Assembly (NCBI GenBank): GCA_947488655.1
Contig: CANKZZ010000001.1
Coordinates: forward strand, 310,001-374,000
Reading direction: 5' to 3'
From: an uncultured Psychroserpens sp.
GTDB taxonomy: Bacteria > Bacteroidota > Bacteroidia > Flavobacteriales > Flavobacteriaceae
DNA: 64,000 nucleotides
Below, piece after piece: positions 1,203 through 18,511 of this stretch (positions are counted from its first letter, which is position 1; the number at the start of each line of letters is the position of its first letter). Position numbers and translations under genes: made by a program. The notes under the pieces are model-generated. The model searched no databases, had not been told where the DNA came from, and saw only the letters and a program-made list of their open reading frames with translations.

Positions 1203-1236
1203 CATTTTAATATTAATTATTTTAAATACAAAAATT

Positions 1237-2109: not shown

Positions 2110-3085
2110 TACTACCTTATTGTCTGATGGTAATAGACAATCTTCAGCAATTATGGAAGTACCATCAAATAGAGAAGCAAGAGAACCCAATCCTTTTATT
2201 GAAGCGAATACAACCCATGTGACACTAGAACACCTAAGGAATGATTGTATTGTTCCTGTGTTCAAGGATAATGAGGTTGCTATTAGTCATACCGAATTTG
2301 TAGAAACTGCAATTAATGCAGTATCTGCAATATTTGGGGATATAAAAATCGCACAACCACAATTAAGAATTTCCCACATGGTAAAAGGTCGTACACCAGA
2401 TGCCTTAAAAATTCCAACAAAGGAATTACTAGACCATCAAAAGACAATATATTATGAACGTCTTGCGTGGGTTTCAAAGATACCTTCACACACTAAGACA
2501 ATAAACGGAAATGAAATTTCTTTGTGTGTTGGTGGTGTAAAATCCTATTCAACTGATAATTTACATAGTAAACATTCTGTGCAACGTTTTAAGATGTTCA
2601 TTGGCTACATTAACAAAATTTGCACCAACTTATGTATTTCAACCGATGGTTATAAAGATGAAATAAAAGTAATGAGTACTGATGAACTTGGTCAAAAAGT
2701 AGAACAATTAGTCTCCAATTATGATGCTGATTATCATCTTAATGCTATGGAACGATTATCACAATTTACATTAAGTGAAAAACAGTTTGGTCAACTTATA
2801 GGTAAAGCAAAACTTTATAATTATCTACCGAAAATTGAAAAGCAAGAGTTGCCAAATTTAATGTTGACAGATAATCAATTCAGCACTATTGCAAAGGATT
2901 ATTATAACGATGTAAACTTTTGCAGAAATGAAGATGGTAGTATAGACTTATGGCGACTTTATAACTTATGCACAGGAGCTGCAAAGTCTAGTTATATTGA
3001 TACGTTCTTAAATCGAAACTTAAACGCATTTCAATTTGTAAATGGTTTAGCCGATACAGTTAATGGGGATTCAAATTCCTATTGA
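2072..3085 (+). CDS. DUF3871 family mobile-element protein
   Basis: The 337-residue protein has the N-terminal segment NPFIEANT followed by LEHLRNDCIVPVF that I associate with DUF3871, a family of unknown function found in Bacteroidota integrative elements. It has no signal peptide, membrane segment or recognisable catalytic motif. The ATG at 2072 lies within the end of the AAA_24 gene, and both genes probably belong to the element core module. A weak inverted repeat (about 3102-3137) follows and overlaps the end of the convergent small HTH gene. Function unknown; the family call is from memory of its conserved start. Confidence 0.7.
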   Translation: MELVKVHQSQDNNTTLLSDGNRQSSAIMEVPSNREAREPNPFIEANTTHVTLEHLRNDCIVPVFKDNEVAISHTEFVETAINAVSAIFGDIKIAQPQLRISHMVKGRTPDALKIPTKELLDHQKTIYYERLAWVSKIPSHTKTINGNEISLCVGGVKSYSTDNLHSKHSVQRFKMFIGYINKICTNLCISTDGYKDEIKVMSTDELGQKVEQLVSNYDADYHLNAMERLSQFTLSEKQFGQLIGKAKLYNYLPKIEKQELPNLMLTDNQFSTIAKDYYNDVNFCRNEDGSIDLWRLYNLCTGAAKSSYIDTFLNRNLNAFQFVNGLADTVNGDSNSY

Positions 3086-3430: not shown

Positions 3431-4327
3431 ATGAATTCAAACAACACTGTTTTAAGGTTTTCAGGACACGATACATTTCACTGTAAAGAACAGTGGATAT
3501 TAAAAGGACTTCAACTAGTTGAATTACAGGAAAATAGAAATATTTTTCGTGAGGTTGAAACGATATCAAGATTGGGTGTTGGAAAAAATATGGTTAGGTC
3601 GATACAACATTGGTTAAGAGCTTTTGGTTTAATAAATGACGATTTAATCCCCACCGACTTTGCAAATTCTCTTTTTTTAAATGAAGCATTAGATCCTTAT
3701 TTAGAGTATGAGGGATCTCTTTGGTTACTACAATATTTTATTTGTAAGAGCCAATATGCATCTATCTATAGAATGATATTTTCTGAGTATTTTTCAGATA
3801 AGGCAACAAATGAATTTTCTGAATCACAAATATTTAGGTTTATAAATAAGAGATTGAAAGATAATGATCAAAAGCCTGTTACTAATAAAACCCTTGAATC
3901 TGATTTTAAGGTCTTTATTAGATCATATGTATCTCCAACAAAAAACCAAAAGACTGTTGAAGATGATTTTAATGTGCCTTTATTGTCGCTTAATTTAATT
4001 TCAGATACTGGAAGACAGAATGACAAAGGTCAGACAGTTTTTAGAGTTAATAAAACGAGCCAAAGTATTCCTTTGGAAATTCTTGCTTATTGCTTACTTA
4101 CTGAATTCGAAGGTGAATTAGCAATTAGCTTTGACAACGTTCGGAAGTCTGTAGGTTCTTATTTGTGCTTATCAAATGATTTGTTAGATGAATTGTTAAG
4201 CCAACTTCCGCAGCGGTTTAATGAGTTTGTTTATAAAGATGATGCAGGAATAAGGCAAATACAAATTAAAGTTAATAATGTCGAGTTTAAAAACGACATA
4301 CTTAGAGATTATTATGAATTACACTAA
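3431..4327 (+). CDS. sspB: DUF4007 protein, SspB-like DNA phosphorothioation component
   Basis: The 298-residue protein begins with RFSGHDTFHCKEQW, the signature start of DUF4007. From memory, DUF4007 is the domain of SspB, the nicking component of the single-strand DNA phosphorothioation system SspABCD. In that system SspB nicks one strand at the target so that sulfur can be placed on the backbone. It opens a plus-strand operon: the next gene (large ATPase) starts 14 bases before this stop, followed by a PP-loop sulfurtransferase, which matches the order sspB-sspC-sspD. No membrane segment is seen. The ATG at 3431 is preceded only by AT-rich sequence. The family call rests on the N-terminal motif plus neighbours. 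Nicking activity is inferred from the family and not visible in the sequence. Confidence 0.75.
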   Translation: MNSNNTVLRFSGHDTFHCKEQWILKGLQLVELQENRNIFREVETISRLGVGKNMVRSIQHWLRAFGLINDDLIPTDFANSLFLNEALDPYLEYEGSLWLLQYFICKSQYASIYRMIFSEYFSDKATNEFSESQIFRFINKRLKDNDQKPVTNKTLESDFKVFIRSYVSPTKNQKTVEDDFNVPLLSLNLISDTGRQNDKGQTVFRVNKTSQSIPLEILAYCLLTEFEGELAISFDNVRKSVGSYLCLSNDLLDELLSQLPQRFNEFVYKDDAGIRQIQIKVNNVEFKNDILRDYYELH

Positions 4328-7300
4328 TAATATATCAACTAATATATTAAGGGATCAATCAGTAAAGATAGATTACCTAGCAACACCAAATGCCAAAGAG
4401 ATTTTTGACAGAATGTTTCTTCATAATTATGGAGCGAATAAATCATTTAATTTAATTGGAAATTATGGAACAGGAAAGTCAACCTTTTTATGGGCGTTGG
4501 AAAAAAATCTAAAAAAAGAAGAGCCTTTTTTTACAAATATTCAGGGCTCAAAAAATATTATTGATTTCGATTTTATTAAGATTATAGGATCAAACACATC
4601 TTTAACGTCTGTTTTATCGAATGAATTAAAACTAAAAGGGAAAGTTGATTCTGAATTAATAATTAAGGCTCTTGAGAAAAGAAGAAAATCTTCAAAAGCA
4701 AAAGGTAAAGGCTTAATCATTATTATTGATGAATTCGGAAAACTATTAGAGTATGCCTCAAGTAATAACTCTACAGATGACATTTATTTATTACAACAAA
4801 TCTCTGAGTGGACTAACAATGACAAAAATGATACTTATTTTATAATAACGTTACATCAAAATTTTTCTAGTTACGGCAAGAAATTATCCAGTCAAGATAA
4901 ATTGGAGTGGGAAAAAGTAAAAGGAAGATTTGTTGATTTGGTCTTTAATGAACCAGTGGAACAGCTTATTTATTTTGCGAGTAAGAAACTAAAAGAATTT
5001 AAAAGACCGAAAAGTTTAAAAAGTAGGCATAGAGACTTAATAAGCTTAGTGGATAAGTCTAAACTTGTAAATCTCAAAACATCCGTAAATGATGATTTAA
5101 CTGATGCTCTATTTCCTTTAGATTGGCTTTCTGCTAATGTTTTAGTTAACTCATTACAAAGGTATGGTCAAAATGAAAGATCTTTATTCTCATTTTTAAA
5201 TGACAGCACTAAATTTGCTATTAATGGTTTTAACGAAGAGTTCTATACCGTATCAAATGTCTATGACTATTTAGTAAACTCATTACCTTCTGAAATTAAT
5301 AGTTTTGATAATCCACATAGAGCACAATGGTTAACCACATTTAGAGTATTAGAGAAGGCTGAGCTGATTTTTAATGATAATTACGAAATTGTTTCAGAAG
5401 TCATTAAAACGATTAGTTTGGTAAATATTTTTTCAAAAATAGGGGGCTTATTTAATGAGACTTTTATTGTCAATTATTTTAGCTTAACAAGGGAAACGGA
5501 TGTGTCAAAAATTCTTGACAAACTTCAAAAATCCGGAATAATTCGATTTTATAAACACAGTAACAAAATAAACTTCTTAGAGGGAACTGATATAGATTTG
5601 GAACAGGAATTAATAACTGTAAACAAAGAAATAAACAGTAAATTTTCACTGTCAAACGAGATTTTGAATAGAATAGATTTTCCAGTGTTATTGGCAAAAA
5701 GACATTCATTTTTAACAGGAACAAATAGATTTTTTGAGTTTAAAATTTTAGATTCCATAGATGATATTTCTAGTTCCGCAGGTGAGATAGATGGTTATAT
5801 TAATTTGATTTTTGATAATATTAACTTAACTAACCTAAAAAAGAAATCTAAAATTTATGAGGATAATTTATTTGTTATTTATGAGAATTCATCTCAAATT
5901 AGAGATGAAATTCTAACTATACTTAAGTTTGAAAAGTTGTTAGAAAAGCACCAATTAGATACAAATGCTCTAAAACTTTTAAGGGATGAAAAGAAGTATT
6001 ATGTTGGAAGACTAACAAACTTAATTTTAGATCAGCTTTTTGGTAGCAATGAAAACATATGGCTTTATAAAGGGAAAACAGAGGAGATTTTAAGCAGACA
6101 TAATTTATATGGGCGATTATCACAGATTTGTGATGAAATATATTCCGAGACTCCGATTTTTATAAATGAATTAATAAACAAAGAATTCATTAGCACCCCA
6201 ATAAATACGGCTAGGAAAGCTTTATTTAGAAAATTATTAGATAGCGAAGAATTTGAAAATTTAGGTTTTGAAGAAAACAAATTTCCACCCGAAAAAGCAA
6301 TTTATATTAGTCTGCTGAAAGAGACTGGAATTCACCAAAAAAATGAGGTCTTAGGTTATTTTCAATTAGATGAGCCAAATGAAGATTCAGAATTATACAG
6401 CCTCTGGCATAAATCTGAGGCTTTTTTAACTAGTTCAATATCCAACAAAAGAAATTTAAAAGAGTTTTACGAGGAACTTTTAAAAAAGCCATATAAATTA
6501 AAAAAGGGCTTCATTGACTATTGGGTGCCAATTTTCCTAATCGCAAAAAAGGAAGACTACGCTTTGTTTCATGTGGAAGGAGGCTTCATTCCATTTTTAA
6601 AGGAGGATACAATTGATTTAATTCATAAGAAGCCACAGGATTTTTTAATTAAAAGCTACGATGTTTCTGGTTTAAAATTAAATTTATTAGAGAGCTACAA
6701 GGAGCTTGTACAGCTAGGAAATTCAGAGGTTGGAAAAAAATCAACGTTCTTGTCTATTTTTGGTAATTTTTTGAGATTTCAAAGAGCTCTAAATAATTAC
6801 ACGCTTAAAACTAAAAAGCTCACGTCTAACGCAATTAAACTGCGTGAGGCTATAGTTTGTTCTAAAGATCCAGAAGATGCTTTATTTAATTTGTTTCCGT
6901 CAGCATTAGGGTATCACTCCCTCTCGATAAAAGAAAATGAAGAGGTGTTGAGCTCATTTACAAATCAAATCCAAGATGCAATTAGAGAAATCCGAACTGT
7001 TTATGATGAATTACTCGACAGAATTGAAAAGGTAATTATAAAAGCATTTCATTGTGAGGCTGAAGATTTTGATGGTTATAAAAATGAAATTGGAGAAAAA
7101 ATAGAAGAGTTAAATTTAGCTGTATTAAGTCAAAAGCAAAGTATATTTTATAAAAGATTAATATCACCGCTTGACGATAGAACAAGTTGGATTAAATCAG
7201 TTGCTGATGTAGCTTTAGGTAAGGGAATAGATGATATGTTAGACGAAGAAGAACCTATTTTAATAGAAAACATTAAAGACTTATCTTTAGGCTTGATAAA

Positions 7301-7532
7301 AGCTACTGAAATTCAGAAGTACAATAGTATTTCTACTAATGGAAAATTATATTCAATTAGGTTTTTTGAGGCAACAGGTGGTTTTAAAGATGAAAGAGTA
7401 TTTTTAGCATCGAATGAAGAAAACACATTTAAAGACGCTAAAGAAAAAATTCGAACGACAATTAATGGTTTAGATAAAGATAAAAGAAAGGAACTTTTGA
7501 TAGAATTACTCTCTAAAGAAATGAGCATATAG
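4314..7532 (+). CDS. sspC: Large P-loop ATPase, SspC-like
   Basis: This is a cytosolic ATPase of about 1072 residues. The Walker A motif GNYGTGKS is at about residues 49-56 and Walker B LIIIIDEFGK at about 134-143, with a following segment ending in TLHQN that resembles a sensor strand. The remaining 800 residues are helical and rich in Lys/Glu with no other motif I recognise. Its place between the DUF4007 gene and the PP-loop gene matches SspC, the ATPase of single-strand phosphorothioation. It could also be compared with BrxC/PglY ATPases of BREX, but no PglZ gene is present. I chose the ATG at 4314 over that at 4278: it overlaps the sspB-like stop by 14 bases and the encoded MNYTNN start avoids a 36-base extension. 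It ends one base before the next ATG. Confidence 0.72.
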   Translation: MNYTNNISTNILRDQSVKIDYLATPNAKEIFDRMFLHNYGANKSFNLIGNYGTGKSTFLWALEKNLKKEEPFFTNIQGSKNIIDFDFIKIIGSNTSLTSVLSNELKLKGKVDSELIIKALEKRRKSSKAKGKGLIIIIDEFGKLLEYASSNNSTDDIYLLQQISEWTNNDKNDTYFIITLHQNFSSYGKKLSSQDKLEWEKVKGRFVDLVFNEPVEQLIYFASKKLKEFKRPKSLKSRHRDLISLVDKSKLVNLKTSVNDDLTDALFPLDWLSANVLVNSLQRYGQNERSLFSFLNDSTKFAINGFNEEFYTVSNVYDYLVNSLPSEINSFDNPHRAQWLTTFRVLEKAELIFNDNYEIVSEVIKTISLVNIFSKIGGLFNETFIVNYFSLTRETDVSKILDKLQKSGIIRFYKHSNKINFLEGTDIDLEQELITVNKEINSKFSLSNEILNRIDFPVLLAKRHSFLTGTNRFFEFKILDSIDDISSSAGEIDGYINLIFDNINLTNLKKKSKIYEDNLFVIYENSSQIRDEILTILKFEKLLEKHQLDTNALKLLRDEKKYYVGRLTNLILDQLFGSNENIWLYKGKTEEILSRHNLYGRLSQICDEIYSETPIFINELINKEFISTPINTARKALFRKLLDSEEFENLGFEENKFPPEKAIYISLLKETGIHQKNEVLGYFQLDEPNEDSELYSLWHKSEAFLTSSISNKRNLKEFYEELLKKPYKLKKGFIDYWVPIFLIAKKEDYALFHVEGGFIPFLKEDTIDLIHKKPQDFLIKSYDVSGLKLNLLESYKELVQLGNSEVGKKSTFLSIFGNFLRFQRALNNYTLKTKKLTSNAIKLREAIVCSKDPEDALFNLFPSALGYHSLSIKENEEVLSSFTNQIQDAIREIRTVYDELLDRIEKVIIKAFHCEAEDFDGYKNEIGEKIEELNLAVLSQKQSIFYKRLISPLDDRTSWIKSVADVALGKGIDDMLDEEEPILIENIKDLSLGLIKATEIQKYNSISTNGKLYSIRFFEATGGFKDERVFLASNEENTFKDAKEKIRTTINGLDKDKRKELLIELLSKEMSI

Positions 7533-7533
7533 A

Positions 7534-8661
7534 ATGGCAAACGTCAAACATTTATTAGGTATATCAGGCGGAAAAGATAGCGCTGCTTTATCTATCTACA
7601 TGAGTAAAAATTTTCCGAGTTTGGATATTGAATACTATACATGTGATACAGGAAAAGAGTTAAAAGAAACGTATGACTTGATTAAGAAGCTAAATTCAGT
7701 TTTAGGTAAGGATATTGTTCTTTATAAGTCAATGGATGAAGATAATTCTCCCATGAAAAACCCATTTGACCATTTCTTGGCTATATACGGTGGTTATCTT
7801 CCGTCACCAACAGCAAGATGGTGCACTAACAAGATGAAATTACAACCTTTTGAAACCTATGTTGGTGACGAACCGACTATTTCTTATGTTGGTATAAGAG
7901 GAGATGAGAACAGAGAGGGATATATATCGAAAAGAGAAAATATTCAAACAATTTTTCCCTTCAGAAAAAATATTTGGAGTGAAGACGTCATAAAAAAGGT
8001 GCTAGCGAATTCTAATATAGATTTAATTAAAGGGTATTATAAAGATATTGCACCGAAGGATATATTTACAAGTGCGATACAATATATAGAGCAACCAATA
8101 TCTCCAAGGTTTACGCAAAGACAAAAGCTCAATGCATTAATGGATGTTGACGTAAAACTATTTAATAAAGTTATATTTCAATATCTAAAAACCACAGATT
8201 ATCCAATAGGAAAACTTGATTCTTTTCCTCTAATTGAAAATGATGAAGTCATAGTTTTAGATGACGTATTTAAAATTTTAGAAGATTCTGGTGTTGGTGT
8301 TCCGGCGTATTATAAGCCGATTGATTATGAGGTAGAGATTGATGGTGAAATTAAAACAGGCACTTACTCCAGAAGTAGGTCAGGTTGCTTTTTTTGCTTT
8401 TATCAACAAAAAATTGAGTGGGTTTGGTTACTAGAACAACATCCCGAATTATATGATAAAGCAATTGAATATGAAAAAGAAGGCTATACATGGATGGCAG
8501 AGCGTTTAGAAGAACTGAAACAGCCAGAACGTGTGCAAGCAATAAAAAAAGAACATTACTTAAGAATGAATAGAGAAAAAAGCAGATCTAGAACCGGTCA
8601 GTCTTGGCAAGATGAAATTTTGCAAGCTGAAGGTGAGGGTTGTGCTAGTTGTTTTATCTAA
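7534..8661 (+). CDS. sspD: PP-loop ATP pyrophosphatase, SspD/DndC-like sulfurtransferase
   Basis: The 375-residue protein is of the PAPS-reductase/PP-loop family used to activate DNA backbone phosphate for sulfur insertion. The PP-loop SGGKDS is at residues 11-16. Cysteines that could bind an iron-sulfur cluster or carry sulfur include C97 (RWCTNK), the pair C285/C288 (SGCFFC) and a C-terminal pair C370/C373 (GCASC). DndC and SspD of known systems also carry conserved cysteines. The start is one base after the ATPase stop. A cysteine desulfurase gene at the far end of the opposite operon would supply the sulfur. Alternatives such as a sulfate-assimilation PAPS reductase are unlikely here because no sulfur assimilation genes are nearby. 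Confidence 0.82.
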   Translation: MANVKHLLGISGGKDSAALSIYMSKNFPSLDIEYYTCDTGKELKETYDLIKKLNSVLGKDIVLYKSMDEDNSPMKNPFDHFLAIYGGYLPSPTARWCTNKMKLQPFETYVGDEPTISYVGIRGDENREGYISKRENIQTIFPFRKNIWSEDVIKKVLANSNIDLIKGYYKDIAPKDIFTSAIQYIEQPISPRFTQRQKLNALMDVDVKLFNKVIFQYLKTTDYPIGKLDSFPLIENDEVIVLDDVFKILEDSGVGVPAYYKPIDYEVEIDGEIKTGTYSRSRSGCFFCFYQQKIEWVWLLEQHPELYDKAIEYEKEGYTWMAERLEELKQPERVQAIKKEHYLRMNREKSRSRTGQSWQDEILQAEGEGCASCFI

Positions 8662-8666
8662 AAATT

Positions 8667-9758
8667 ATGAAATATACTACAAAAGAATGGACAGTTAAAA
8701 GCCTAATTGATTTGTACGCGAGGGGTGATTTAAGATTAAACCCACCGTATCAAAGAAATCCTGTTTGGTCCATTAAATCTCAGAAAGAGTTAATTGATTC
8801 TATAAAAATTGGTTACCCTTTGCCTGCGTTTTTCTTACACAAAGTAGGAGATAAAAATTATGATGTTGTCGATGGACAACAAAGGTCAAGAACGTTATTG
8901 AAATATTTCAATACTAATTCTTTAGACTCAAGTGGAGAAGACTTTAATTTTAAAAAAGACGAATTTTTAAAATATAAGTTGACTATAGTTGAGATTTATG
9001 ACGTCACAAAAAGTGATTATATCGAAGATTTTTACTATCGTGTTAATAAGTATGGATTAAGGGTAAATAGACCTGAAGAAATTAAATCAAAATTCTTTAA
9101 TACTAAATTTTTAGAGCTGGTACAAGAAATAGTTTTAAGTGAAGATTTTTTAAATCTTGAATTGGTTTCTAAAAACTCGAGAAACAGAATGCTAGACAGA
9201 GACCTAGTTGAGGAAATAGCCGCGTTACTTAAGAACGGCAATACAGATAAAAAAAAGGCGGTGGATAAAATTTATGAAGATGATCTTTCTCAAGAAGAAA
9301 TTGAAAGTTTAAAATTAAATTTTGAAAAGATATTGGGGATTTTAAATAAATGGAATGATATTTTTCCGCTTAAGGAAACGAGATATAGGCAAAGGAATGA
9401 TATTTATACAATCTTCGGATTACTTAATAATATTTCAGATTTTTCTGAAGATTCCTTAAGCTTAATTTATGAAGTTTTATTAGCCATAGAACCTGGAATT
9501 TTACCAAATAAATCTGCCTGTATTCCTTTAGCTGAATACGCATTTAATTGTATTTCTCAATCTAATTCAAAAAAGGCACGAGATATTAGGCTTGAAATAT
9601 TAAAAAGCATCCTTGTCAATAAAGAAGATACACCTAACGAGACACAAAAACAAATTATAGATTATTATCAATTAAATATTAGTGACACAATAACAAATAG
9701 AATGTTCACAACATTGAACCCCGAAAAGCTAAAACAGGTCGTAAACGTTCAAGAATGA
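8667..9758 (+). CDS. DUF262 protein with DGQQR motif, no HNH domain
   Basis: The protein has about 363 residues. The N-terminal 130 residues form a DUF262 (ParB/Srx-like) domain: NPPYQRNPVW near residue 30 and DGQQRSRTL with the DGQQR motif at residues 69-73. In SspE and GmrSD this domain binds and hydrolyses nucleotide, and in SspE it senses phosphorothioate DNA. SspE continues into a C-terminal DUF1524/HNH nuclease. Here the C-terminal 230 residues are helical and lack an HNH signature. The gene is not visibly broken, since its stop overlaps the ATG of the kinase (ATGA). I chose ATG 8667 rather than the TTG at 8649, because it sits 5 bases after the sspD-like stop. I infer a phosphorothioate sensor or NTPase that works with a separate effector. 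Confidence 0.75.
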   Translation: MKYTTKEWTVKSLIDLYARGDLRLNPPYQRNPVWSIKSQKELIDSIKIGYPLPAFFLHKVGDKNYDVVDGQQRSRTLLKYFNTNSLDSSGEDFNFKKDEFLKYKLTIVEIYDVTKSDYIEDFYYRVNKYGLRVNRPEEIKSKFFNTKFLELVQEIVLSEDFLNLELVSKNSRNRMLDRDLVEEIAALLKNGNTDKKKAVDKIYEDDLSQEEIESLKLNFEKILGILNKWNDIFPLKETRYRQRNDIYTIFGLLNNISDFSEDSLSLIYEVLLAIEPGILPNKSACIPLAEYAFNCISQSNSKKARDIRLEILKSILVNKEDTPNETQKQIIDYYQLNISDTITNRMFTTLNPEKLKQVVNVQE

Positions 9759-10684
9759 AATTGATAAGGCACTCAAATATAATTATTCTTTCACGTGATA
9801 AAAGAGATAATATCTTAACCACGCCTGAGAGGGAAACCTTTGAAATCGATAGTATCAATGGTGATGGACAAACTATTGTTGGTGGTAACGGGTGTCTTTT
9901 TAAGGTAATTTCATCTAACGATGGAGGGGAATATGCTCTAAAAGTATCAAGGTACTCTTATGAATTAGCAGAAGAAAATAAAAAAATAGAAAAGCGCGTT
10001 AAAAGATTTGAAAGAGAAATAGAAGCTATGTCTGTTTCGAGCACTAATTTTTTGGAACATGTTGTCCCTTTTTATTCAAGCGGAAATATTACTATTGACG
10101 GAAAAAGATTTCCTTATTTTATAATGGAACTTTGTGAATTTCATCTAGGCGATCTGGTAGCAGCAAGAAAAGAAATTCTAGACGACGGCGAAAGATTAAG
10201 AATTAGTGCGTTAATTGTGAGGGGAATTAAATCGCTAAACGAATTTGATATTTACCATAGAGACATTAAACATGAAAATATTCTATTCCTTGATGACCTT
10301 CCATACATAGCGGATTTAGGATTAAGTGATTACCGCCCTACAGATATAGACATAGATGAATTAGGCGAAAAAATCGGCCCAATTGGATGGCTATCTCCAG
10401 AAGCAACAAATAAGTACTTAACAGAAAAAACTTCTTACGTAGGGGACTATGATTGTGTTATTGATTCAAAATCGGATGTTTTTCAATTAGGTAAATTGAT
10501 TTGGTTTTTATTCCAAGGAAATCTTCCACTTGGTCAAATTTCAGAAACGGATTTTATTTCAGACGAAAAAGATATTTATCATATCGTAAAAGATGCTTTA
10601 GCGCACAATAAAGAAAACAGATTGTCAATTGATGATATGCTAGATAGATTAGAGGCATTATTTCCTAAGTATTTTTTATCTTAA
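9755..10684 (+). CDS. Soluble Ser/Thr protein kinase in defence operon
   Basis: The 309-residue protein is a eukaryotic-like kinase without a membrane segment. A degenerate glycine loop (GGNGCLFKV) leads to the ATP-binding Lys K63 (YALKVS). The catalytic loop YHRDIKHEN has H168-R169-D170, the metal-binding Asp D187 is in ADLGLSD (DLG in place of DFG), and WLSPEA stands for the APE motif. All key catalytic residues are present, so it is probably active. The start overlaps the DUF262 stop by four bases (ATGA), which implies translational coupling and a joint function. Kinases occur in other defence systems (for example Stk2-type abortive infection and PglW in BREX/Pgl), but I do not know one as a member of an Ssp or Dnd operon. 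It ends 30 bases from the end of the convergent operon. Confidence 0.85.
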   Translation: MKLIRHSNIIILSRDKRDNILTTPERETFEIDSINGDGQTIVGGNGCLFKVISSNDGGEYALKVSRYSYELAEENKKIEKRVKRFEREIEAMSVSSTNFLEHVVPFYSSGNITIDGKRFPYFIMELCEFHLGDLVAARKEILDDGERLRISALIVRGIKSLNEFDIYHRDIKHENILFLDDLPYIADLGLSDYRPTDIDIDELGEKIGPIGWLSPEATNKYLTEKTSYVGDYDCVIDSKSDVFQLGKLIWFLFQGNLPLGQISETDFISDEKDIYHIVKDALAHNKENRLSIDDMLDRLEALFPKYFLS

Positions 10685-10714
10685 TTTAAACACTATGAGA
10701 TTAAAATAAATAGA

Positions 10715-11206
10715 TTATTCATCTAACAAATCTAAAAAGCAGTTATCATTTAAAAAGAACGATTCTTCTTCATCCATTTTAGAACGTATTATATCAAATC
10801 CACCATTTGCATAGCCTTCTAAAAGACTTTTTAGCCCTGTGATTTTCTTTTCAACATCTTCTTCTTGCATGTTCTCTAACTCATTAAAATCAATATCTGA
10901 TTTAGCTAAAACCCCCATAATTACATAATCAGCGACATCATAAGGTTGCCACGATTTAATTTCAATAAATTTTTTCTTATTTGTACCGGCGGCAATAGGC
11001 AAATTATAGTCTTTTTTTAGCCCTAAGAGAGAGGCATACATGTACATTTCATAACGTGTCGAAAAGTATTTACCTTGTTTCCACCGTTCTTCCTCTGATG
11101 TTCTACCCATGCCACTACCTTGTTCGATAGTGAAATTTAAAATCATATCGAAATATCGAGAATCATACTCTGGAGCTCTATCTTTTATTCTTTTTAGTAA
11201 ATCCAT
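10715..11206 (-). CDS. Unrecognised 163-residue protein, last gene of minus defence operon
   Basis: I do not recognise this family. It is a soluble, acidic protein. Visible features are a segment GKYFSTRYEMYMYASLLGL, a short lysine cluster in KKKFIEIK, an aromatic patch SWQPYDVADYVIMG and a C-terminal EGYANGGFDII. There are no catalytic motifs or membrane segments. It starts two bases after the stop of the SMC-like ATPase gene, so the two are certainly co-expressed and probably form a complex. By position it could play the part of a small Dnd or SspFGH subunit. It is longer than DndE, and I see no resemblance I would defend. No equivalent gene occurs elsewhere in the window. Confidence 0.7.
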   Translation of the reverse strand: MDLLKRIKDRAPEYDSRYFDMILNFTIEQGSGMGRTSEEERWKQGKYFSTRYEMYMYASLLGLKKDYNLPIAAGTNKKKFIEIKSWQPYDVADYVIMGVLAKSDIDFNELENMQEEDVEKKITGLKSLLEGYANGGFDIIRSKMDEEESFFLNDNCFLDLLDE

Positions 11207-11208
11207 AA

Positions 11209-13395
11209 TTAATTTAGAGGCTTGATGTTAGTTGCTAATGAATTTCTGTTTGTACGTTCCTCTTCAGGAATATTTGGTGTAATCATATATACCTTACCAA
11301 GCTTAATGTCTTTGTTGTTTAAGAGTTCGTTACGAAGTTCTATATTTTTATAAAATTCCTTACTCATAATAATACTTTGCTTATAAACCTTACTTACAGT
11401 TTTACAGAAGCCGATAGTATAGTCATCCCCAAAAGCTGACATAGGGGCGTCAGTAATGAGAGTATATAAATCTGTATCTCTAGACCCTTTTCTGGCTGAG
11501 ATAATTGCCATAATCGTAGCCAACTTTATAAGTATAATGTTACCTGTGTTTAATTGAAGTAATACGTTTCCGTTCTCATCGACGAGTTCAGGCATATAGT
11601 TCTTATTACTTAATTCTTTTAGTTTTATTATACCTCTAGCTGAAAGATTGCCCTGTATCATTTCCTTGTAATGCTTATTCGCTTCTTCTTCTAACATATT
11701 AACTAATTGTTTAAAGATTCTCTCTCTGGTAGAATGTGCGATAGCTTTGAAATCTTCTAAAATCTCTACTTTTTCTTGAAGGAAAGCAGGGATTTCTCCA
11801 GTAACTAAATCACCTAATTCCTTATTGATTATTTCAATTTGTTTTTTGGTTCGTTCTTTTGAAACCTCTGTTAAGGTTAACTCCTTTTGAAAACGTTTAG
11901 CGTAGTCATTTTGTGATTGGTATGAACTTAGTAGGTTTTGAGCTTCTGAAACATCAATTGCTGACTCGGATATCATGCTTTCGACTTCTTTTTCTAACTT
12001 TTCTAGATCTTGAGAAAGAGTTTTTCTTTTAGTTGATAGCTTTTGAATATTTGTAAAGGTTTTAGAAATGTCGTCATCGATTCGCTTTATGTTGTGACTA
12101 AGACCTAAACCATTTTGATAAAGCTTTTTTAAGTCGTTGCTAAAATCGTGAATCGTAATTTCTTCATCTTCAATATTTTTTATTCTCAATTTAGAACGAT
12201 CAATTAATTCTTTCATTTTTAACCAAGGCTCAGAACCTTTTGGTGCTTCTCTATCACAAACTAAACAGTGCTCTTCGTCAAGCATTCTTTCTACATGAAT
12301 TGGCTCTGGCACATCAATAGGGAGTCTTGTTTGAAGCTCTTTAATCATGGCATTTTCAGCCTCTAACTGAGCCTTAACTTCAGCCATTTTGTTGAGTTTG
12401 ACTTTTTCATAAGAATTATACTTTTTACCATACTCTTCGAAAATGTTTTCAGTCCCTTTTAATACCCAGCGATTAGTAAATAGTTTTTTGTGCAAGTCAA
12501 TTTGTTCTTTGTTGAATTCTTGCTGTATGTTAATCAAATCATTTTCAATCGATTTTCTTCTATAGTCAACATCCTTTATTTTTTGAGCATCTGAAATTTT
12601 GTTTAACAACGCTTCAGCTTTTTGTTCGGCAGTAGATTGCTGATCTTGTTGACTTAATTCATCTTTCTCTAAATTTTTTAAGGTAATTATTAATTTTTTC
12701 CTCTCAATTTCAAGTTGTTCGCTTCGAGAAGTGTCTTTACTTAGTGAGCGTATTTTTTTATTATACTCTTTCGCTGATGATTCTTGCAACGAATCTGCAA
12801 GACTAGATATATTATCAAATCTTGAAATATCTGATAAGATATTTATCGCCTGGGTCAAAGTTTGAGATTTGTTAAAATCTATTATGGATTCGATTTGCTC
12901 ACCTTGAAACCACATGTATGGTTTAATATTATCAGGTAGTATTCTGTTTTTTAGATTTTCAATCTTTAAAGGATCATTGATTATTTTAGAATTTAAATAA
13001 GATAATTCTTTCCAGCTGATAATTTCTTCCGAGACATAATCTGGCGTTATAGTATCTTCTAATTTATTTACAAAGTACCTTCTTTGAATACTGTATTCAC
13101 TTCCTTTTTCAACATCATCAAAAGTAAGTGTTACAGAGGTTTTTACCCTGTCATCGTCCACTTCAAATAGTGCTTTATCTGAAACAATACTGTTTTTTAA
13201 TATCGATGTCTTGACGAACTCTTTTTTATTAGTGTCAAAGCATTCATCATACATTACCCAATAGAAGGCATCATACAATTTAGATTTGCCGTAACCATTA
13301 TCTCCAATAATTACATTTATTCCTTCCTTGAAGTCAAATTTATTATATCCATAATAGCACATAAAATTTTCTAACTCAATACTTTTTAATATCAT
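11209..13395 (-). CDS. SMC-like AAA ATPase with CxxC hook, DndD-like
   Basis: The 728-residue protein has an SMC/Rad50 layout. The N-terminal head carries Walker A GDNGYGKS near residue 31. Two coiled-coil arms flank a zinc-hook-like CLVC motif (C377/C380), and the C-terminal head has a degenerate signature LNTGNIILIKL and a Walker B-like segment LITDAPMS in which the usual Asp-Glu is Asp-Ala. DndD of the double-strand phosphorothioation system is the closest family I know, an ATPase thought to help alter DNA structure. SMC-like proteins also occur in restriction modules. The start overlaps the 72-residue gene by four bases. The altered Walker B may lower or change hydrolysis. Whether it modifies or restricts DNA cannot be told from sequence. 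Confidence 0.75.
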   Translation of the reverse strand: MILKSIELENFMCYYGYNKFDFKEGINVIIGDNGYGKSKLYDAFYWVMYDECFDTNKKEFVKTSILKNSIVSDKALFEVDDDRVKTSVTLTFDDVEKGSEYSIQRRYFVNKLEDTITPDYVSEEIISWKELSYLNSKIINDPLKIENLKNRILPDNIKPYMWFQGEQIESIIDFNKSQTLTQAINILSDISRFDNISSLADSLQESSAKEYNKKIRSLSKDTSRSEQLEIERKKLIITLKNLEKDELSQQDQQSTAEQKAEALLNKISDAQKIKDVDYRRKSIENDLINIQQEFNKEQIDLHKKLFTNRWVLKGTENIFEEYGKKYNSYEKVKLNKMAEVKAQLEAENAMIKELQTRLPIDVPEPIHVERMLDEEHCLVCDREAPKGSEPWLKMKELIDRSKLRIKNIEDEEITIHDFSNDLKKLYQNGLGLSHNIKRIDDDISKTFTNIQKLSTKRKTLSQDLEKLEKEVESMISESAIDVSEAQNLLSSYQSQNDYAKRFQKELTLTEVSKERTKKQIEIINKELGDLVTGEIPAFLQEKVEILEDFKAIAHSTRERIFKQLVNMLEEEANKHYKEMIQGNLSARGIIKLKELSNKNYMPELVDENGNVLLQLNTGNIILIKLATIMAIISARKGSRDTDLYTLITDAPMSAFGDDYTIGFCKTVSKVYKQSIIMSKEFYKNIELRNELLNNKDIKLGKVYMITPNIPEEERTNRNSLATNIKPLN

Positions 13396-13610
13396 TTTTC
13401 GCGATTTAAAAGTTGATTAATCTTTCTTGCTGTAACGTTTGTGCTTTCGCGTGAAATATCTCCTTCAATCGCGAGTTTAATTACTGATATTAAATCAGAA
13501 TTATCATTATCAGTCCATTTTATCTTCTCTACAGGAACGTTGATAAGATAATTTTTGTTCTCTACAATATCGTCTGATAAATAGATTTTAAGTAGTTCTT
13601 CTTTTGTCAT
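13392..13610 (-). CDS. Unrecognised 72-residue protein within defence operon
   Basis: This short soluble protein contains the segments LLKIYLSDDIVENKNYLINVPVEKIKW and TARKINQLLNREK in two stretches. I do not recognise it and see no motif. It is a real gene by context: its ATG overlaps the helicase stop (ATGA) and its stop overlaps the SMC-like ATPase start in the same way, so it is translated in line with both. It is likely a structural or regulatory subunit of the complex encoded by its neighbours. Confidence 0.65.
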   Translation of the reverse strand: MTKEELLKIYLSDDIVENKNYLINVPVEKIKWTDNDNSDLISVIKLAIEGDISRESTNVTARKINQLLNREK

Positions 13611-15856
13611 ACATTTATTATTTCGTTATAAATGGTATAAATATTTATTCCGTAATGGTCGCAAACTTCATTGAATACATTTTCTGTGTAATCTGGATTT
13701 TTTGATAGAGATGCAAAATACATAACTCTTTCTAATTCTTTTTCAACCATTTTTCTTTCAACTTTATTAGTATCTGAATCAATGTCAGATTGAGTTAAGT
13801 CAGGCACCACAACTAAATCATGAATTACGGCAAAGTGTTTGTCTTTGTGTTTTCTTAATATCCTTCCCCTTCTTTGAATAAATTGTCTCGGGTTTCCTGT
13901 ACTTGAGCAGAAGACCGCATGTTCGGCTCTCGGAATATCTACTCCTTCATCTAAACATTTCATCGATGCAATCACATGGATGTCACCTTCTTTAAACTGG
14001 TTTAAAACCTCATCTCTATCTTTCATTCCACCTATGAATTGATTAACCATAATAGAGCGATGAATTTTGCCAATTTCTCTGGTGTATTGATTAATGATTC
14101 TTATGTTATCCTCATCTTCATTTTCATCTTCATTTAATTCATACGTATTGCCCTCAGGAACATAAATGAAGGTGTATTTTAAATCACCATCATTTTGGAA
14201 TCGTTCTTTTAAAATTGAAATCGTTTTAGGTAATTTATTTTCTGCCTTGTGGATTATTTGTTTTCTTATTAATAAGAGTCTTTCTAGCCTATCTGATAGC
14301 TCAGGATTTTTATCTACTCCCTGAATACATCGGGAAATTTTTTTTGTAATCTCTATGTAGTTTTCTAATTCCTCTTTAGTTAGGCTAACTATATGTGGGT
14401 AATATTCATATTTACATAGGATATTTTCCTCAATAGCCCTATTCATGCTGAAACTGTAGGTGTAAGGCTCTTTGTCGTTAAAGAATTTTTCCAAAGTTTC
14501 ACTACCAACTTCATCATAAACTCTTTTTGGTGTAGCTGAGAGACCAATTCTTTTTTTACACTTAATTAGATCTAGTTTTTCTAATACGGATCTAGATCCT
14601 ACGTTATGTGCTTCATCTGCAATAAATAAAGTTTCTTTTGGTAGCTTGGACAAGTATTTATTGAAACGATCTCTGATAAAAGAGGCATAAGTACTTATAA
14701 TTATAAATGAAGTTGAAACCCTTTTAGCCATCGACAGTAAAGTCGATAATTCATTTTCCCAAGGGTTTTTTGATGAGACTTTAATCACGTAATTAAAGTT
14801 AAAACTTTTAGCTTCCTCTTCCCATTGATTTACTAATGTAATGGTAGGAACAAGGATTAGTGCTTGATAAATATTGTCGTTTTTTCTCGTTTCTTCAAGT
14901 AAGCAGTTTAATGACGTTATTGTTTTACCAGTTCCGGTAGCCATTGCAAAAATACCTTGAGAGTCGTTTTTTAACCATTTTTCATAGGCCTCAACTTGGT
15001 ATTCTCTAGGCTCTGATATTTTACCATCAAACCGAGGGAAATGAGGGAACTGTTCAGATTCTTCAAATTGTTCAATTTTCTTTTGTGCGGCTTTAAGAGA
15101 TTTACGAACTTTAGGGTTTCCTAGTAGTTTGTTTTTCTTTGTAATGAGCTCCTTTTCAGAAATTAATAATTCATTGATCGTTTTATTTCCAAATTCCTTT
15201 TGAATAGAAATAAGGATATCGTTAGGGTTAAGATAATCTACAAAGTCAGCATTACCACTGTAAATTCTATCAAAATAGTCCGTTAAACTTTTTATTCTTT
15301 TATCAGAGCTTGGATCCTCCCAAGACAAGTGACAGTCAAGTTCCTCTAAATTTTCCAATAACCCATAAGCCGTGAAGTTACATGAAGCCTTGAATCCAAC
15401 CTTATTAGTACCATCACCAAAAACACCAGATTTATAGTGTGAAATTCCTTTTCCACCAATTGGTTGAATGATTTTTACAGTAATTCGATTATTGCTTATC
15501 AGCCATGCTAGACACTCAAAAAAATGTTTATCAGATTCTTTTAGGGTATGTTGTAATTTAGTTATATTATTTAGGTCAAATTGGTTTTTTATAACATTAC
15601 CTTCAAGACCATTTTTAACCGCAATTTTATCTTGTTCGGATAGAATATTATTTATTATCATTCTTATTTTTCCACCGTTGTATATAAAATTAGCGAAACC
15701 TAATGAAAGTAAATTGATTGCAGAAGAACTAAAATAGCCAAGAAGCAGGTCAAATGTATTACTATTGCATAAAGCATCAAGATAGAACTGAAACGGCTCG
15801 TCTTCACTTCCTGTTTTATACCCTCTATCGTCAGCCCACTTTACGCTTCTAAGCAT
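13607..15856 (-). CDS. PLD-nuclease/DEAH superfamily 2 helicase
   Basis: The 749-residue fusion protein has an N-terminal phospholipase D-like nuclease domain, with HYK at about residues 140-142 followed by a distal Asp and KASCNF, matching the H-x-K and Ser/Asn positions of the family. A superfamily 2 helicase follows, with Walker A ATGTGKT (Lys about residue 308), DEAH near residues 414-417, motif III GLSATP, and motif VI RQFIQRRGR. The PLD domain probably cuts DNA and the helicase translocates. Proteins of this build serve as restriction subunits, and one helicase family is annotated as a phosphorothioation-linked restriction enzyme. Its ATG overlaps the desulfurase stop by eight bases. 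It is the best candidate for the cutting effector that attacks unmodified DNA. Confidence 0.82.
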   Translation of the reverse strand: MLRSVKWADDRGYKTGSEDEPFQFYLDALCNSNTFDLLLGYFSSSAINLLSLGFANFIYNGGKIRMIINNILSEQDKIAVKNGLEGNVIKNQFDLNNITKLQHTLKESDKHFFECLAWLISNNRITVKIIQPIGGKGISHYKSGVFGDGTNKVGFKASCNFTAYGLLENLEELDCHLSWEDPSSDKRIKSLTDYFDRIYSGNADFVDYLNPNDILISIQKEFGNKTINELLISEKELITKKNKLLGNPKVRKSLKAAQKKIEQFEESEQFPHFPRFDGKISEPREYQVEAYEKWLKNDSQGIFAMATGTGKTITSLNCLLEETRKNDNIYQALILVPTITLVNQWEEEAKSFNFNYVIKVSSKNPWENELSTLLSMAKRVSTSFIIISTYASFIRDRFNKYLSKLPKETLFIADEAHNVGSRSVLEKLDLIKCKKRIGLSATPKRVYDEVGSETLEKFFNDKEPYTYSFSMNRAIEENILCKYEYYPHIVSLTKEELENYIEITKKISRCIQGVDKNPELSDRLERLLLIRKQIIHKAENKLPKTISILKERFQNDGDLKYTFIYVPEGNTYELNEDENEDEDNIRIINQYTREIGKIHRSIMVNQFIGGMKDRDEVLNQFKEGDIHVIASMKCLDEGVDIPRAEHAVFCSSTGNPRQFIQRRGRILRKHKDKHFAVIHDLVVVPDLTQSDIDSDTNKVERKMVEKELERVMYFASLSKNPDYTENVFNEVCDHYGINIYTIYNEIINV

Positions 15857-16991
15857 GATTTAAATTTAAATGTTTATTTAAAGATTCTATAAAAAAATCT
15901 ATGTCGTCTGTAGTTGAATATTTATCAAGTGATATTCTTAAATAATTACTTTCGTAGATATCATTTGGAAACATCGCTTTTATAACATGTGAGACCTCCA
16001 TTACTTCAGAGTTGCAAGCTGAACCACTGCTTAAAGCAATATTTTTATATTTATCAATAAAAATGTTAGATTCTAATTTAGGAATTTTAATATACGAAAT
16101 ATGAGGAACGACAGCACCCTCTGTAGGTATTCTTATGACAGATGTAGTCGAATCAAGTTTGTTGAAAAGGTGTCTTTTTAAGGTTTCAATTTTTTTAGTG
16201 TTTTTGTCCAAATCTCTTAATGCAATTTCACAGGCTTGCCCTAAACCAACAATTAGAGGAGTATTATAAGTTCCGGATCTATTACCGTTTTCTTGATTAC
16301 CACCATGAATTAGTGGAGTAAGTTCAACATCGTTCCTTTTATATAGCACTCCAATACCTTTAGGGCCGTTTATTTTATGTCCAGAAAAGCATAACATATC
16401 AATATTGTCATTTTCAACATTAACAGGAATTTTTCCAATCGCTTGAGTCGCATCACAAAAAAAAGTAACATTCTTTTCTTTTGCTATTGCCCCAATTTCT
16501 TTTATTGGATGAATAATACCAGTTTCATTATTTACATACATAATTACAATTAAAGCAGTAGTTTTCTTTACGGAATTCCTCAATTCCTCAATTAATATGC
16601 GACCGTTTTCATCCAAATTTAAATATGTTACTTCGTAGCCTTTGGTTTCGAGATAATTACATGTTGATAAAACTGCCTTGTGTTCTGTTTTAACTGTAAT
16701 GATATGATTTCCTTTATCATAATTTGCTTCTAGAAAACCCTTTAATCCATAATTGATAGCTTCCGTAGCACCAGAAGTGAAAATAATATCCTCCTTATTT
16801 GAGTTGATAATTCGAGAAACTTGTGATCTAGAGTTTTCTATAGCTTGTTTAGATTTTTCTCCAAAATCATGTTTGCTGGAGGCGTTTCCATAATATTCTT
16901 CAAAATATGGTAACATCGTTTTAAAAACCGATTTATCAATTTTTGTTGTAGATGCGGAATCCAAATATGATTTGATACCATTAATTTTCAT
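15849..16991 (-). CDS. Cysteine desulfurase (DndA/SspA role)
   Basis: This 380-residue PLP enzyme converts cysteine to alanine and passes the sulfur on as persulfide. The PLP-binding Lys is K206 in SGHKINGPKG, and the catalytic Cys is C326 in the loop SSGSACNSE. The length and the loop are those of IscS/NifS-type and DndA/SspA enzymes. It is the first gene of the minus operon and overlaps the helicase by eight bases. The PP-loop sulfurtransferase in the opposite operon lacks a desulfurase of its own, so this gene probably feeds it and ties the two operons into one system. No Fe-S assembly genes are nearby, which argues against a housekeeping role. Confidence 0.88.
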   Translation of the reverse strand: MKINGIKSYLDSASTTKIDKSVFKTMLPYFEEYYGNASSKHDFGEKSKQAIENSRSQVSRIINSNKEDIIFTSGATEAINYGLKGFLEANYDKGNHIITVKTEHKAVLSTCNYLETKGYEVTYLNLDENGRILIEELRNSVKKTTALIVIMYVNNETGIIHPIKEIGAIAKEKNVTFFCDATQAIGKIPVNVENDNIDMLCFSGHKINGPKGIGVLYKRNDVELTPLIHGGNQENGNRSGTYNTPLIVGLGQACEIALRDLDKNTKKIETLKRHLFNKLDSTTSVIRIPTEGAVVPHISYIKIPKLESNIFIDKYKNIALSSGSACNSEVMEVSHVIKAMFPNDIYESNYLRISLDKYSTTDDIDFFIESLNKHLNLNHA

Positions 16992-17296
16992 AACGTAAAG
17001 TCAATAGGTGGAATGAGTATTTTGTAAATGTTCAATAAAAAGATTAAAGCTAAAGATATTAAGTGTAAAAAAGAATTTTTTTAAAATTTTTTACCCCTCT
17101 TCATTAATGCAGATGCAAAGCACCCTAGCTAAACACCCTCACTAACCTCTGCGAAAGGGGAACCCCACCCCTTTGTATATATTCCAAAATTAATCTTGTC
17201 GGCTAAAACTATATCAAGGTGATAGCTGTTATTCTTTAGCTGATGGTAGAAGACATTTTGGAACAAAACAAAAGTTCAACTCAAAATTTTAAAATC
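16992..17296. other. Intergenic region with GC-rich hairpin
   Basis: About 305 bases separate the divergent desulfurase and the next element gene. At 17154-17174 a hairpin with seven perfect pairs (AAAGGGG, loop of seven, CCCCTTT) stands out in AT-rich DNA. A TAATTTTG box on the minus strand (17192-17185) with a TTG 22 bases upstream fits a flavobacterial promoter and could drive the minus defence operon, although it lies about 190 bases from its start. No other gene is seen. Confidence 0.4.
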
Positions 17297-17689
17297 ATGG
17301 TACGAATTATTAACTACAATGAAAGAGAATCTGAAGATGGTTCTACATTCTTTGCTCTAACTATTCAGGGTGGAGTGGAATTACTTCAAAGTAAATCAAC
17401 AGGCAACTTTTATGCAACTGCAAAAAAAGCCAGTATAAGTTCAACCTTTGACAAGGAAACTTGTGAGGCACTTATTGGAACTGAAATGCCTGGTAAAATT
17501 GTGAAAAAGGAATGTGAACCATATTCTTACACCATCAAGGAAACAGGTGAGATTATTGAATTATCTCACAGGTATGAATATGAGACTGAAACACCATCAA
17601 AAATGGATGACATAAGTGAATCAACTATTGATGACTTTGTTACTAGTGAAGCTGTAAAGGAAGAGAATCATCCACTTATAGCAGGATAG
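17297..17689 (+). CDS. Conserved mobile-element protein of unknown function
   Basis: This soluble protein of about 130 residues starts MVRIINYNERESEDG and contains a repeated beta-strand pattern. I remember similar proteins in Bacteroidota integrative elements next to AAA_24 and DUF3871 genes, without a known function. An in-frame ATG at 17243 would add 18 residues. I prefer 17297 because family members start with MVRIINY and the extension looks unstructured. The C-terminal 30 residues are acidic. A hairpin terminator follows at once. It probably belongs to the element maintenance genes rather than to the defence system. Confidence 0.6.
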   Translation: MVRIINYNERESEDGSTFFALTIQGGVELLQSKSTGNFYATAKKASISSTFDKETCEALIGTEMPGKIVKKECEPYSYTIKETGEIIELSHRYEYETETPSKMDDISESTIDDFVTSEAVKEENHPLIAG

Positions 17690-17698
17690 AGTCTAATC

Positions 17699-17738
17699 AA
17701 TGCCCAGAATATTTTGTTTTGGGCATTTTAATTTTTTT
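17699..17738 (+). terminator. Intrinsic terminator
   Basis: The 8-bp arms AATGCCCA and TGGGCATT enclose an AT loop and are followed by TTTTAATTTTTTT. The hairpin lies 10 bases past the preceding stop and just before the RadC-like start. Confidence 0.75.
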
Positions 17739-17742
17739 GAAA

Positions 17743-18180: not shown

Positions 18181-18249
18181 TTGAGGCTAAAACACCTCAT
18201 TTTGGACATATTTTTAGTCAAAGTAAAATATAGAGATTATTATAAGTAG

Positions 18250-18483: not shown

Positions 18484-18511
18484 TTTTAGGATTAATTGAC
18501 AAATCAAAGTT

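What the first reader, a model, noticed from the sequence alone, without database searches (positions are those of the whole stretch)
3431..16991. Composite phosphorothioation-type defence locus in two convergent operons
Visible directly: two sets of five genes with overlaps or gaps of at most five bases, ending 30 bases apart. The plus set reads DUF4007, large P-loop ATPase, PP-loop sulfurtransferase, DUF262, kinase. The minus set reads cysteine desulfurase, PLD-helicase, 72-residue protein, SMC-like ATPase, 163-residue protein. Known: SspABCD does single-strand DNA phosphorothioation, with SspE or SspFGH as restriction partners, and DndA/C/D do double-strand modification. The combination here places SspBCD-like genes together with a DndD-like ATPase, a PLD-helicase, a kinase and a DUF262 protein without nuclease. 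I know no described system with this full set. It may be a new hybrid of modification and restriction in which the DUF262 protein or the kinase replaces SspE.
Basis: partly seen in the sequence, partly recalled or inferred. Interest (0 to 1): 0.85.

Follow-up and report, generated by a model that had tools for sequence, protein, structure and literature searches.

The report
Sulfur-marking defence locus with kinase cassette
Two facing operons encode a known way of marking the cell's own DNA with sulfur (SspABCD), a known DNA-blocking module usually seen with a different sulfur-marking system (PbeABCD), and between them a conserved sensor-plus-protein-kinase gene pair, for which we found no description, that is swapped like a cassette among related loci.

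Summary
The ten genes are there as described. The plus set is SspB, SspC, SspD, a DUF262-only protein and a Ser/Thr kinase; the minus set is a cysteine desulfurase (SspA) plus PbeABCD in canonical order (PbeA and PbeC firm, PbeB and PbeD by position and weak matches). So the 'DndD-like ATPase and PLD-helicase' are not a new hybrid but a known module, described with Dnd marking and found here with Ssp marking. That pairing recurs at 13 loci (Bacteroidota, Alphaproteobacteria), once as an eight-gene same-strand run. The new part is the DUF262-kinase pair: after SspD in 11 loci, beside Ssp genes on three plasmids, in 0 of 13 control DUF262 loci. It occupies a slot between marking and blocking modules that elsewhere holds DndB, deoxyribosyltransferase-like or DUF262-SIR2 cassettes; between two Hymenobacter loci it was exchanged with both flanks conserved. 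Best reading: a DNA- or PT-state sensor (ParB-like fold, DGQQR motif) driving a kinase output, a second effector layer in SspE's place. Module identity is nearly certain; the kinase's role is inferred, with no bench test. New variant of a known kind.

The parts
3431..4327 (+). SspB (DUF4007), DNA-binding part of the single-strand phosphorothioation module
   Evidence: PADLOC PDLC02760 3.7e-92; Pfam DUF4007 3.7e-69; PDB SspB 6juf 1.1e-11
4314..7532 (+). SspC, ATPase (listed ORF starts 4278; the ATG at 4314 is the likelier start)
   Evidence: PDLC02776 1139.7 bits; Walker A GNYGTGKS at residue 61 of the listed ORF
7534..8661 (+). SspD, PP-loop/PAPS-reductase-like sulfurtransferase, long form (375 aa)
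   Evidence: PDLC02782 1.6e-86; SGGKDS at residue 11
8667..9758 (+). DUF262-only protein (ParB-like fold, no DUF1524/HNH match), putative sensor (listed ORF starts at TTG 8649)
9755..10684 (+). Ser/Thr protein kinase, catalytic residues present
   Evidence: Pkinase 1.7e-20; mad6 4.2e-27; K63, HRD 168-170, DLG 187-189; these residues invariant in 11 aligned rows
10715..11206 (-). PbeD-like, 163 aa
   Evidence: TIGR04062 dnd_assoc_4 2.4e-6, below its cut-off (27.8 of 74.25 bits); BLASTP 3e-19 to the PbeD-position protein of L037
11209..13395 (-). PbeC-like ABC-type ATPase with CxxC hook
   Evidence: PDLC02714 4.4e-34; Walker A at 31; CLVC at 377
13392..13610 (-). PbeB-position small protein, 72 aa
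   Evidence: size and place; family match only to the same-position proteins of L062 and L160
13607..15856 (-). PbeA, PLD nuclease-like domain plus SF2 helicase
   Evidence: PDLC02706 1058.1 bits, full length; HxK..D at 140, Walker A 308, DEAH 414
15849..16991 (-). SspA/DndA cysteine desulfurase
   Evidence: PDLC02759 1.4e-139; PLP motif SGHK 203, GSAC 323

Best explanation
The locus is a three-module anti-phage system. (1) SspA frees sulfur from cysteine and SspB, SspC and SspD put single-strand phosphorothioate (PT) marks on the cell's DNA; this is by homology, the motif here being unknown. (2) PbeA-D is the restriction module: PbeC and PbeD engage DNA, PbeA (helicase plus PLD-type nuclease fold) acts on it, and unmarked DNA is stopped from replicating. 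(3) The DUF262 protein and the kinase form a separate sensor-output pair in the position after SspD: the DUF262 protein reads marked or unmarked DNA, or DNA-bound Ssp complexes, through its ParB-like/DGQQR nucleotide pocket and switches on the kinase, which phosphorylates host or phage proteins to stop infection. It works like SspE with the nuclease replaced by a separate kinase. Shown: gene identities, intact catalytic motifs, conserved neighbourhood, cassette exchange. Inferred: PT sensing, kinase activation, kinase targets, and that Pbe here depends on the mark.
For: Profiles. Pbe order and sizes as published. SspBCD with Pbe at 13 loci: window, L033-L036, L157, L160, L062, L065, L040, L041, L150, L151; in L151 as one same-strand run SspA-B-C-D-PbeA-B-C-D. 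In 395 phylum genomes 10 have PbeA at 280 bits or more; 7 of these 10 sit at SspBCD. DUF262-kinase after SspD at 11 loci: window, L050, L057, L058, L059, L061 (same as L054), L062-L065, L164; next to Ssp genes on 3 plasmids, L131, L143, L132. In the 395-genome sample only three DUF262 matches exceed 380 bits and all three follow SspD; the next scores 130. 0 of 13 control DUF262 loci have this kinase family within three genes. Exchange: L057 against L153, SspB/C/D and the facing 820-830-aa protein 83-87% identical, slot genes DUF262-kinase in one and a distant DUF262 plus SIR2 in the other, DNA similarity breaking at the slot. L064 has the pair but no match to the Pbe, ~815-aa ATPase or triad-helicase profiles in its 21 kb. 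Fold and motifs.
Confidence: 0.5

Rival explanations
1. The DUF262-kinase pair is a regulator, not an effector: a DndB-like ParB-superfamily sensor of PT density that, through phosphorylation, tunes SspBCD activity or holds back the restriction module so that the host is not attacked.
For: DndB-type genes with a ~175-180-aa partner sit in the same slot in L034, L043 and L162 (DndB alone in L165); L162 by sequence clustering only. The pair accompanies SspBCD whatever restriction module is there: Pbe, the ~815-aa ATPase, or SspFGH on a plasmid. DndB's role is described in PMC10853773 (passages).
Against: A SIR2-domain gene takes the kinase's place in L153, which suits a killing effector better. 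The slot is exchanged between close loci, unlike a regulator that co-adapts with its core. L064 has no other effector recognised by the profiles used.
Confidence: 0.3
2. The DUF262-kinase pair is an independent defence pair that merely travels in the island and has nothing to do with PT.
For: DUF262-only proteins with other partners exist far from Ssp. DUF262 systems without DUF1524 are known: Menshen, Dazbog, PD-T4-2 (PMC10952713, passages). L060 has the pair without SspB or SspC.
Against: The strong-scoring clade was found only after SspD in the 395-genome sample. All 3 plasmid records with a kinase match at E 1e-15 or better also carry SspC.
Confidence: 0.12
3. Pbe does not read PT here; it is a stand-alone module and SspABCD is paired only with the DUF262-kinase pair.
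For: Pbe-type modules often occur without PT genes: 320 of 553 PbeAC without dndCD (PMC6459918, passages); also L038 and L168-L170 here, where no PT-marking gene was recognised or annotated in the stretch.
Against: SspABCD and Pbe form one same-strand run in L151; 7 of 10 strong PbeA genomes in the sample sit at SspBCD; Ssp linkage of PbeA needs at least two changes on the tree.
Confidence: 0.15

Closest known systems
SspABCD-SspE (single-strand PT system)
   Same: All four modification proteins match; a DUF262 protein with DGQQR lies directly downstream of SspD
   Different: No DUF1524/HNH match in the DUF262 protein; a kinase gene follows; Pbe is present
DndCDEA-PbeABCD (Xiong et al. 2019)
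   Same: Restriction genes PbeA-B-C-D in the same order and similar sizes, cysteine desulfurase present
   Different: Modification is SspBCD, not DndCDE; a DUF262-kinase pair is added
SspABCD-SspFGH (Wang et al. 2021)
   Same: Same modification module; DUF262-kinase also accompanies SspFGH on a Pseudanabaena plasmid
   Different: No SspF, SspG or SspH match in the ten proteins
IscS-DndBCDE-DndI
   Same: DUF262 N-domain with the P-x-Y-Q and DGQQR positions that serve PT response and ATP hydrolysis in DndI
   Different: DndI carries its own HNH domain; double-strand marking
MADS (MAD6 kinase) and type 2 BREX (PglW kinase)
   Same: Ser/Thr kinase within a modification-based defence locus; mad6 is the best PADLOC match of the kinase (4.2e-27)
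   Different: Methylation rather than PT (recalled for MADS); apart from the SspC/BrxC and SspD/BrxP kinship, no other defining MADS or BREX gene among the listed matches

Membership tests
SspABCD modification module | SspB (DUF4007), SspC ATPase, SspD sulfurtransferase in one operon | tested here: met
SspABCD modification module | Cysteine desulfurase SspA or a housekeeping IscS | tested here: met
   15849-16991, PDLC02759 1.4e-139; SspA and DndA models score alike (463.6 and 458.8 bits)
SspABCD modification module | PT in DNA (CpsCA in known cases) | not testable with these tools
   needs mass spectrometry or iodine cleavage
PbeABCD | PbeA with PLD, ResIII and helicase domains | tested here: met
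   PDLC02706 1058.1 bits, ResIII, Helicase_C, HxK motif; no Pfam PLD domain match at E 0.1; TIGR04095 411.6 bits, below its cut-off of 600
PbeABCD | PbeB, small protein between A and C | tested here: inconclusive
   72 aa in place; no informative library match; homologous only to the same-position proteins of L062 and L160
PbeABCD | PbeC ABC-type ATPase with CxxC hook | tested here: met
   PDLC02714 4.4e-34 (116.3 bits), CLVC at 377
PbeABCD | PbeD, ~150-aa dnd-associated protein 4 / DndE cognate | tested here: inconclusive
   TIGR04062 2.4e-6 but 27.8 bits against a cut-off of 74.25; no PADLOC match
PbeABCD | Gene order A-B-C-D | tested here: met
SspE | N-terminal DUF262 with DGQQR | tested here: met
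   no PADLOC SspE model matched at E 0.1
SspE | C-terminal DUF1524/HNH nuclease | tested here: not met
   no Pfam match beyond GmrSD_N in 369 aa; EHxxP absent in 13 of 13 relatives examined
SspFGH | SspF, SspG, SspH | tested here: not met
   none among the listed matches of the ten proteins (lists of the kinase and the PbeC-like ATPase were cut at 25 of 28 and 29)
DndCDE modification | DndC and DndE | tested here: not met
   DndC at most 18.5 bits on SspD, no DndE among the listed matches
Type 4 BREX | PglZ and BrxL | tested here: not met
   neither among the listed matches of the ten proteins
MADS | MAD1-MAD8 set (recalled) | tested here: not met
   only mad6, on the kinase, among the listed matches

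The most novel reading that the evidence does not exclude
Ssp loci carry an exchangeable effector slot between the PT-marking and restriction modules, and one recurrent cassette is a new class of PT-state-sensing effector: a nuclease-less DUF262 sensor that switches on a protein kinase (or a SIR2 enzyme), making PT immunity a signalling system rather than only a DNA-cutting one, layered on an interchangeable restriction module.
Probability: 0.4. Interest if true: 0.78.

Novelty: new variant of a known kind. Interest (0 to 1): 0.6.

Why it matters
If right, it links single-strand PT marking to the Pbe module known from Dnd systems and to protein phosphorylation, and shows that PT defence is built from separately swappable marking, sensor-effector and restriction parts. 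Wang et al. found sspFGH or sspE at only 7.3% and 7.4% of 2,678 sspBCD loci, with 36 more holding both (PMC8092258, passages); Pbe, the ~815-aa ATPase, the helicase triad and the slot cassettes seen here are candidates for part of the remainder. It also makes a clean question testable: can one PT mark feed a nuclease-type and a kinase-type response at once?

Tried and rejected
Rejected: SspFGH, MADS or BREX identity. Rejected: 'new hybrid with DndD' (it is PbeC-like). A mirror-tree test of SspC, SspD, DUF262 and kinase over 9 loci gave no usable signal; even SspC against SspD had rho 0.24, reached by 436 of 2000 permutations. A structure of the facing ~815-aa ATPase-like protein came out at pLDDT 56.9 and was not used. 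No terminator seen between the operons: hairpin z -0.42; promoter-like and terminator-like counts are near shuffled levels. The viral-contig scan gave 60 loci with at most 38% identity in the best segment; their neighbourhoods were not examined. The 750-aa DUF262 protein of L048 matched no SspE model at E 1e-4. One paper search was wasted by asking for a word stem as a whole word (0 papers).

Print status: library searches for PbeABCD with SspBCD (1 paper; its passages, name the systems separately), SspB + phosphorothioat + kinase + DUF262 (2 papers), phosphorothioat + DUF262 + kinase, SspABCD + protein kinase, SspBCD + Bacteroidetes and SspBCD + kinase; also SspABCD + SspFGH, PbeABCD + phosphorothioat and DUF262 + HEPN. 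I opened ten papers, of most only passages; of the 15 I opened three. In what I saw there is no description of SspBCD-Pbe pairing or of the DUF262-kinase pair. Subscription journals, preprints and supplementary tables were not seen, so this is not proof of absence from print.
Full report
Observation. All ten ORFs are present at the stated places. The two operons converge with 30 bases between their stops.

Identity. Against PADLOC, Pfam and NCBIfam the plus set is SspB (3.7e-92), SspC (1139.7 bits), SspD (1.6e-86), a DUF262/GmrSD_N-only protein and a protein kinase. The minus set is a cysteine desulfurase (SspA and DndA models alike), PbeA (1058.1 bits, full length), a 72-aa protein, a PbeC-like ATPase (4.4e-34) and a 163-aa protein that matches 'DNA phosphorothioation-associated protein 4' weakly (2.4e-6). 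Xiong et al. 2019 (PMC6459918, passages) describe PbeABCD with PbeB of 66 aa and PbeD of 152 aa; Rakesh et al. 2024 (PMC10853773, passages) reinterpret PbeA as an HKD nuclease fused to an SF2 helicase, PbeC as a hook-bearing ABC ATPase and PbeD as a DndE cognate. Window PbeA has an HxK..D motif (H140), Walker A and DEAH; PbeC has Walker A and CxxC; the kinase has K63, HRD168 and DLG187; DUF262 has PPYQR32 and DGQQR75. The PbeA HxK motif was present in 11 of 11 relatives scored above 900 bits and the PbeC CxxC in 10 of 10 above 700 bits.

SspBCD with Pbe is a recurring pair. In 395 genomes drawn from the phylum, SspD (E at most 1e-20) occurs in 22 and PbeA of at least 280 bits in 10. Of those 10, seven lie at SspBCD (G000, G296, G265, G324, G218, and with diverged Pbe G167, G270), two lie beside DndC/DndD-like genes, judged by size and cross-matches only (L037, L039), and for one (L038) no modification gene was recognised. 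A class sample of 395 genomes had SspD in 16; six of these were already in the first sample, and two of the ten new loci, L157 and L160, add Pbe. So 9 of 32 SspD-positive genomes have Pbe at SspBCD. Outside these samples: L062 and L065, Rhizobium indigoferae plasmid L150 (Pbe in another order) and Sphingomonadaceae plasmid L151, where SspA-B-C-D-PbeA-B-C-D run on one strand. In L040, L041 and L151 PbeB and PbeD were not recognised by sequence and are named by place. On a PbeA tree of 22 rows, the 13 Ssp-linked rows need 3 changes, at least 2 forced by well-supported branches; as few arose in 1 of 500 label shuffles. So Pbe seems to have changed marking partner more than once.

The DUF262-kinase pair. 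One genome-contig scan with a two-row DUF262 alignment gave 11 loci. In 9 of 11 (L057-L065) a kinase follows DUF262 (in L057 after small ORFs), and in 8 of those 9 an Ssp-type SspD precedes it; L060 has only a PAPS-reductase-like gene, L066 is a DUF262 fragment after SspD without kinase, L067 has neither. L061 is the same locus as L054. Adding the window, L050 (DUF262 interrupted) and L164 gives 11 distinct loci after SspD. On plasmids the pair lies next to Ssp genes in two Asticcacaulis records and one Pseudanabaena record, there behind SspF-G-H; in Sphingopyxis DUF262 follows SspFGH while the kinase sits beside SspD about 38 kb away. With a 10-row profile, 23 of 395 genomes match at 1e-20, but only three matches exceed 380 bits, all after SspD; the next is 130. 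In SspD-driven terms the pair is present in 4 of 32 SspD-positive genomes (window, G188, G385, G662). Thirteen weaker DUF262 loci (98-152 bits) were examined: none has this kinase family within three genes. In the E. coli plasmid record the partner is annotated as a HEPN-like nuclease. The kinase's K63, HRD and DLG residues are invariant over 11 aligned rows. In a 13-row count HRD is present in 13 of 13 kinases and D[LF]G in 12 of 13; DGQQR is present in 12 of 13 DUF262 proteins, the count including the interrupted L050, whose frame lacks the N-terminal part.

A slot. I listed the genes after SspD at 27 loci with the long-form SspD. This set is not unbiased: seven of them (L057, L059, L061-L065) had been fetched because they carry this DUF262 protein, although L061 is also G385 of the SspD sample; two (L152, L153) came from an SspC search of plasmids; a contig-end locus (L163), short-form and weak SspD loci were left out. 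After SspD come DUF262-kinase in 9, a deoxyribosyltransferase-like protein with a ~210-225-aa partner in 4 (L033, L043, L064, L157), DndB-type genes in 4 (L034, L043, L162, L165), DUF262-SIR2 in 1 (L153), and in the rest other genes or a restriction module directly. L064 and L043 carry two cassettes each. The other side is Pbe, a ~815-aa protein with a weak GHKL-type ATPase match, or a helicase + MzaB-like ATPase + DrmC-like PLD triad; not every locus shows one. On an SspC tree of 25 rows, with the same bias, the restriction type (23 rows with a known type) needs 8 changes and the slot label 7; the labels are still somewhat clustered (as few changes in 9, 78 and 87 of 500 shuffles for Pbe, the ~815-aa protein and the triad). 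The clearest exchange is Hymenobacter siberiensis (L057) against Hymenobacter sp. YIM 151858-1 (L153): SspB 83%, SspC 83%, SspD 87% and the facing protein 84% identical, but a 36%-over-64-residue DUF262 match and kinase against SIR2 in between, with DNA similarity (blastn, 1e-10) covering 4703-9993 and 13037-15501 of L057 and nothing between. In L063 against L065 SspD is 93% identical, DUF262 41% and kinase 39%, and the restriction modules differ, so there slot and restriction side both changed.

Novelty. Marking module and restriction module are known; their pairing and the DUF262-kinase cassette were not found in print in the searches named under Tried and rejected. It is a new variant of a known kind, with a bolder reading left open.

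Noticed in passing
window 82-3085 and 17243-18507: The locus is flanked by genes of mobile-element type (tyrosine integrase, AAA_24, DUF3871 on the left; a 148-aa protein, RadC and an HTH gene on the right), so it looks like cargo of an integrative element; the ends were not mapped.
   Followed up: partly
L057 13027-15519, L153 15236-17704, L054 5222-7675, L063, L043, L050, L164, L165, L047: A conserved ~800-830-aa protein with a weak GHKL-type ATPase match faces or follows SspBCD in these loci; it may be an undescribed restriction partner. The model was too poor to use.
   Followed up: partly
L042, L048, L049, L051, L152, L159, L166: A three-gene set (PbeA-like helicase, MzaB-like ATPase, DrmC-like PLD protein) sits beside SspBCD and may be another restriction partner; profiles were run on the L042 and L152 sets, the others by clustering.
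   Followed up: partly
L153 13361-15239: SspBCD is followed by a distant DUF262 protein (29% over 217 residues to the window's) and a SIR2-domain protein in place of DUF262-kinase.
   Followed up: yes
L033 9057-10083, L157 8293-9344, L064 12140-13193, L043 8802-9819: A recurring cassette of a nucleoside 2-deoxyribosyltransferase-like protein and a ~210-225-aa protein without a Pfam match after SspD (L043 by clustering).
   Followed up: partly
L132 119-11179 and L155: On a Pseudanabaena plasmid DUF262-kinase directly follows SspF-G-H, so the pair also travels with that restriction module.
   Followed up: yes
L060 9097-12051: In a candidate division WOR-3 contig DUF262-kinase follows a PAPS-reductase-like gene without SspB or SspC.
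   Followed up: no
L050 8515-9630 (G188): The DUF262 gene is interrupted by a stop while open frames for the kinase, SspB, SspC and SspD are present.
   Followed up: no
L160 5816-9418: Another slot content with SspA-Pbe: 550-aa, 371-aa (weak AAA and BrxC/D-like matches) and 275-aa proteins of unclear family.
   Followed up: no
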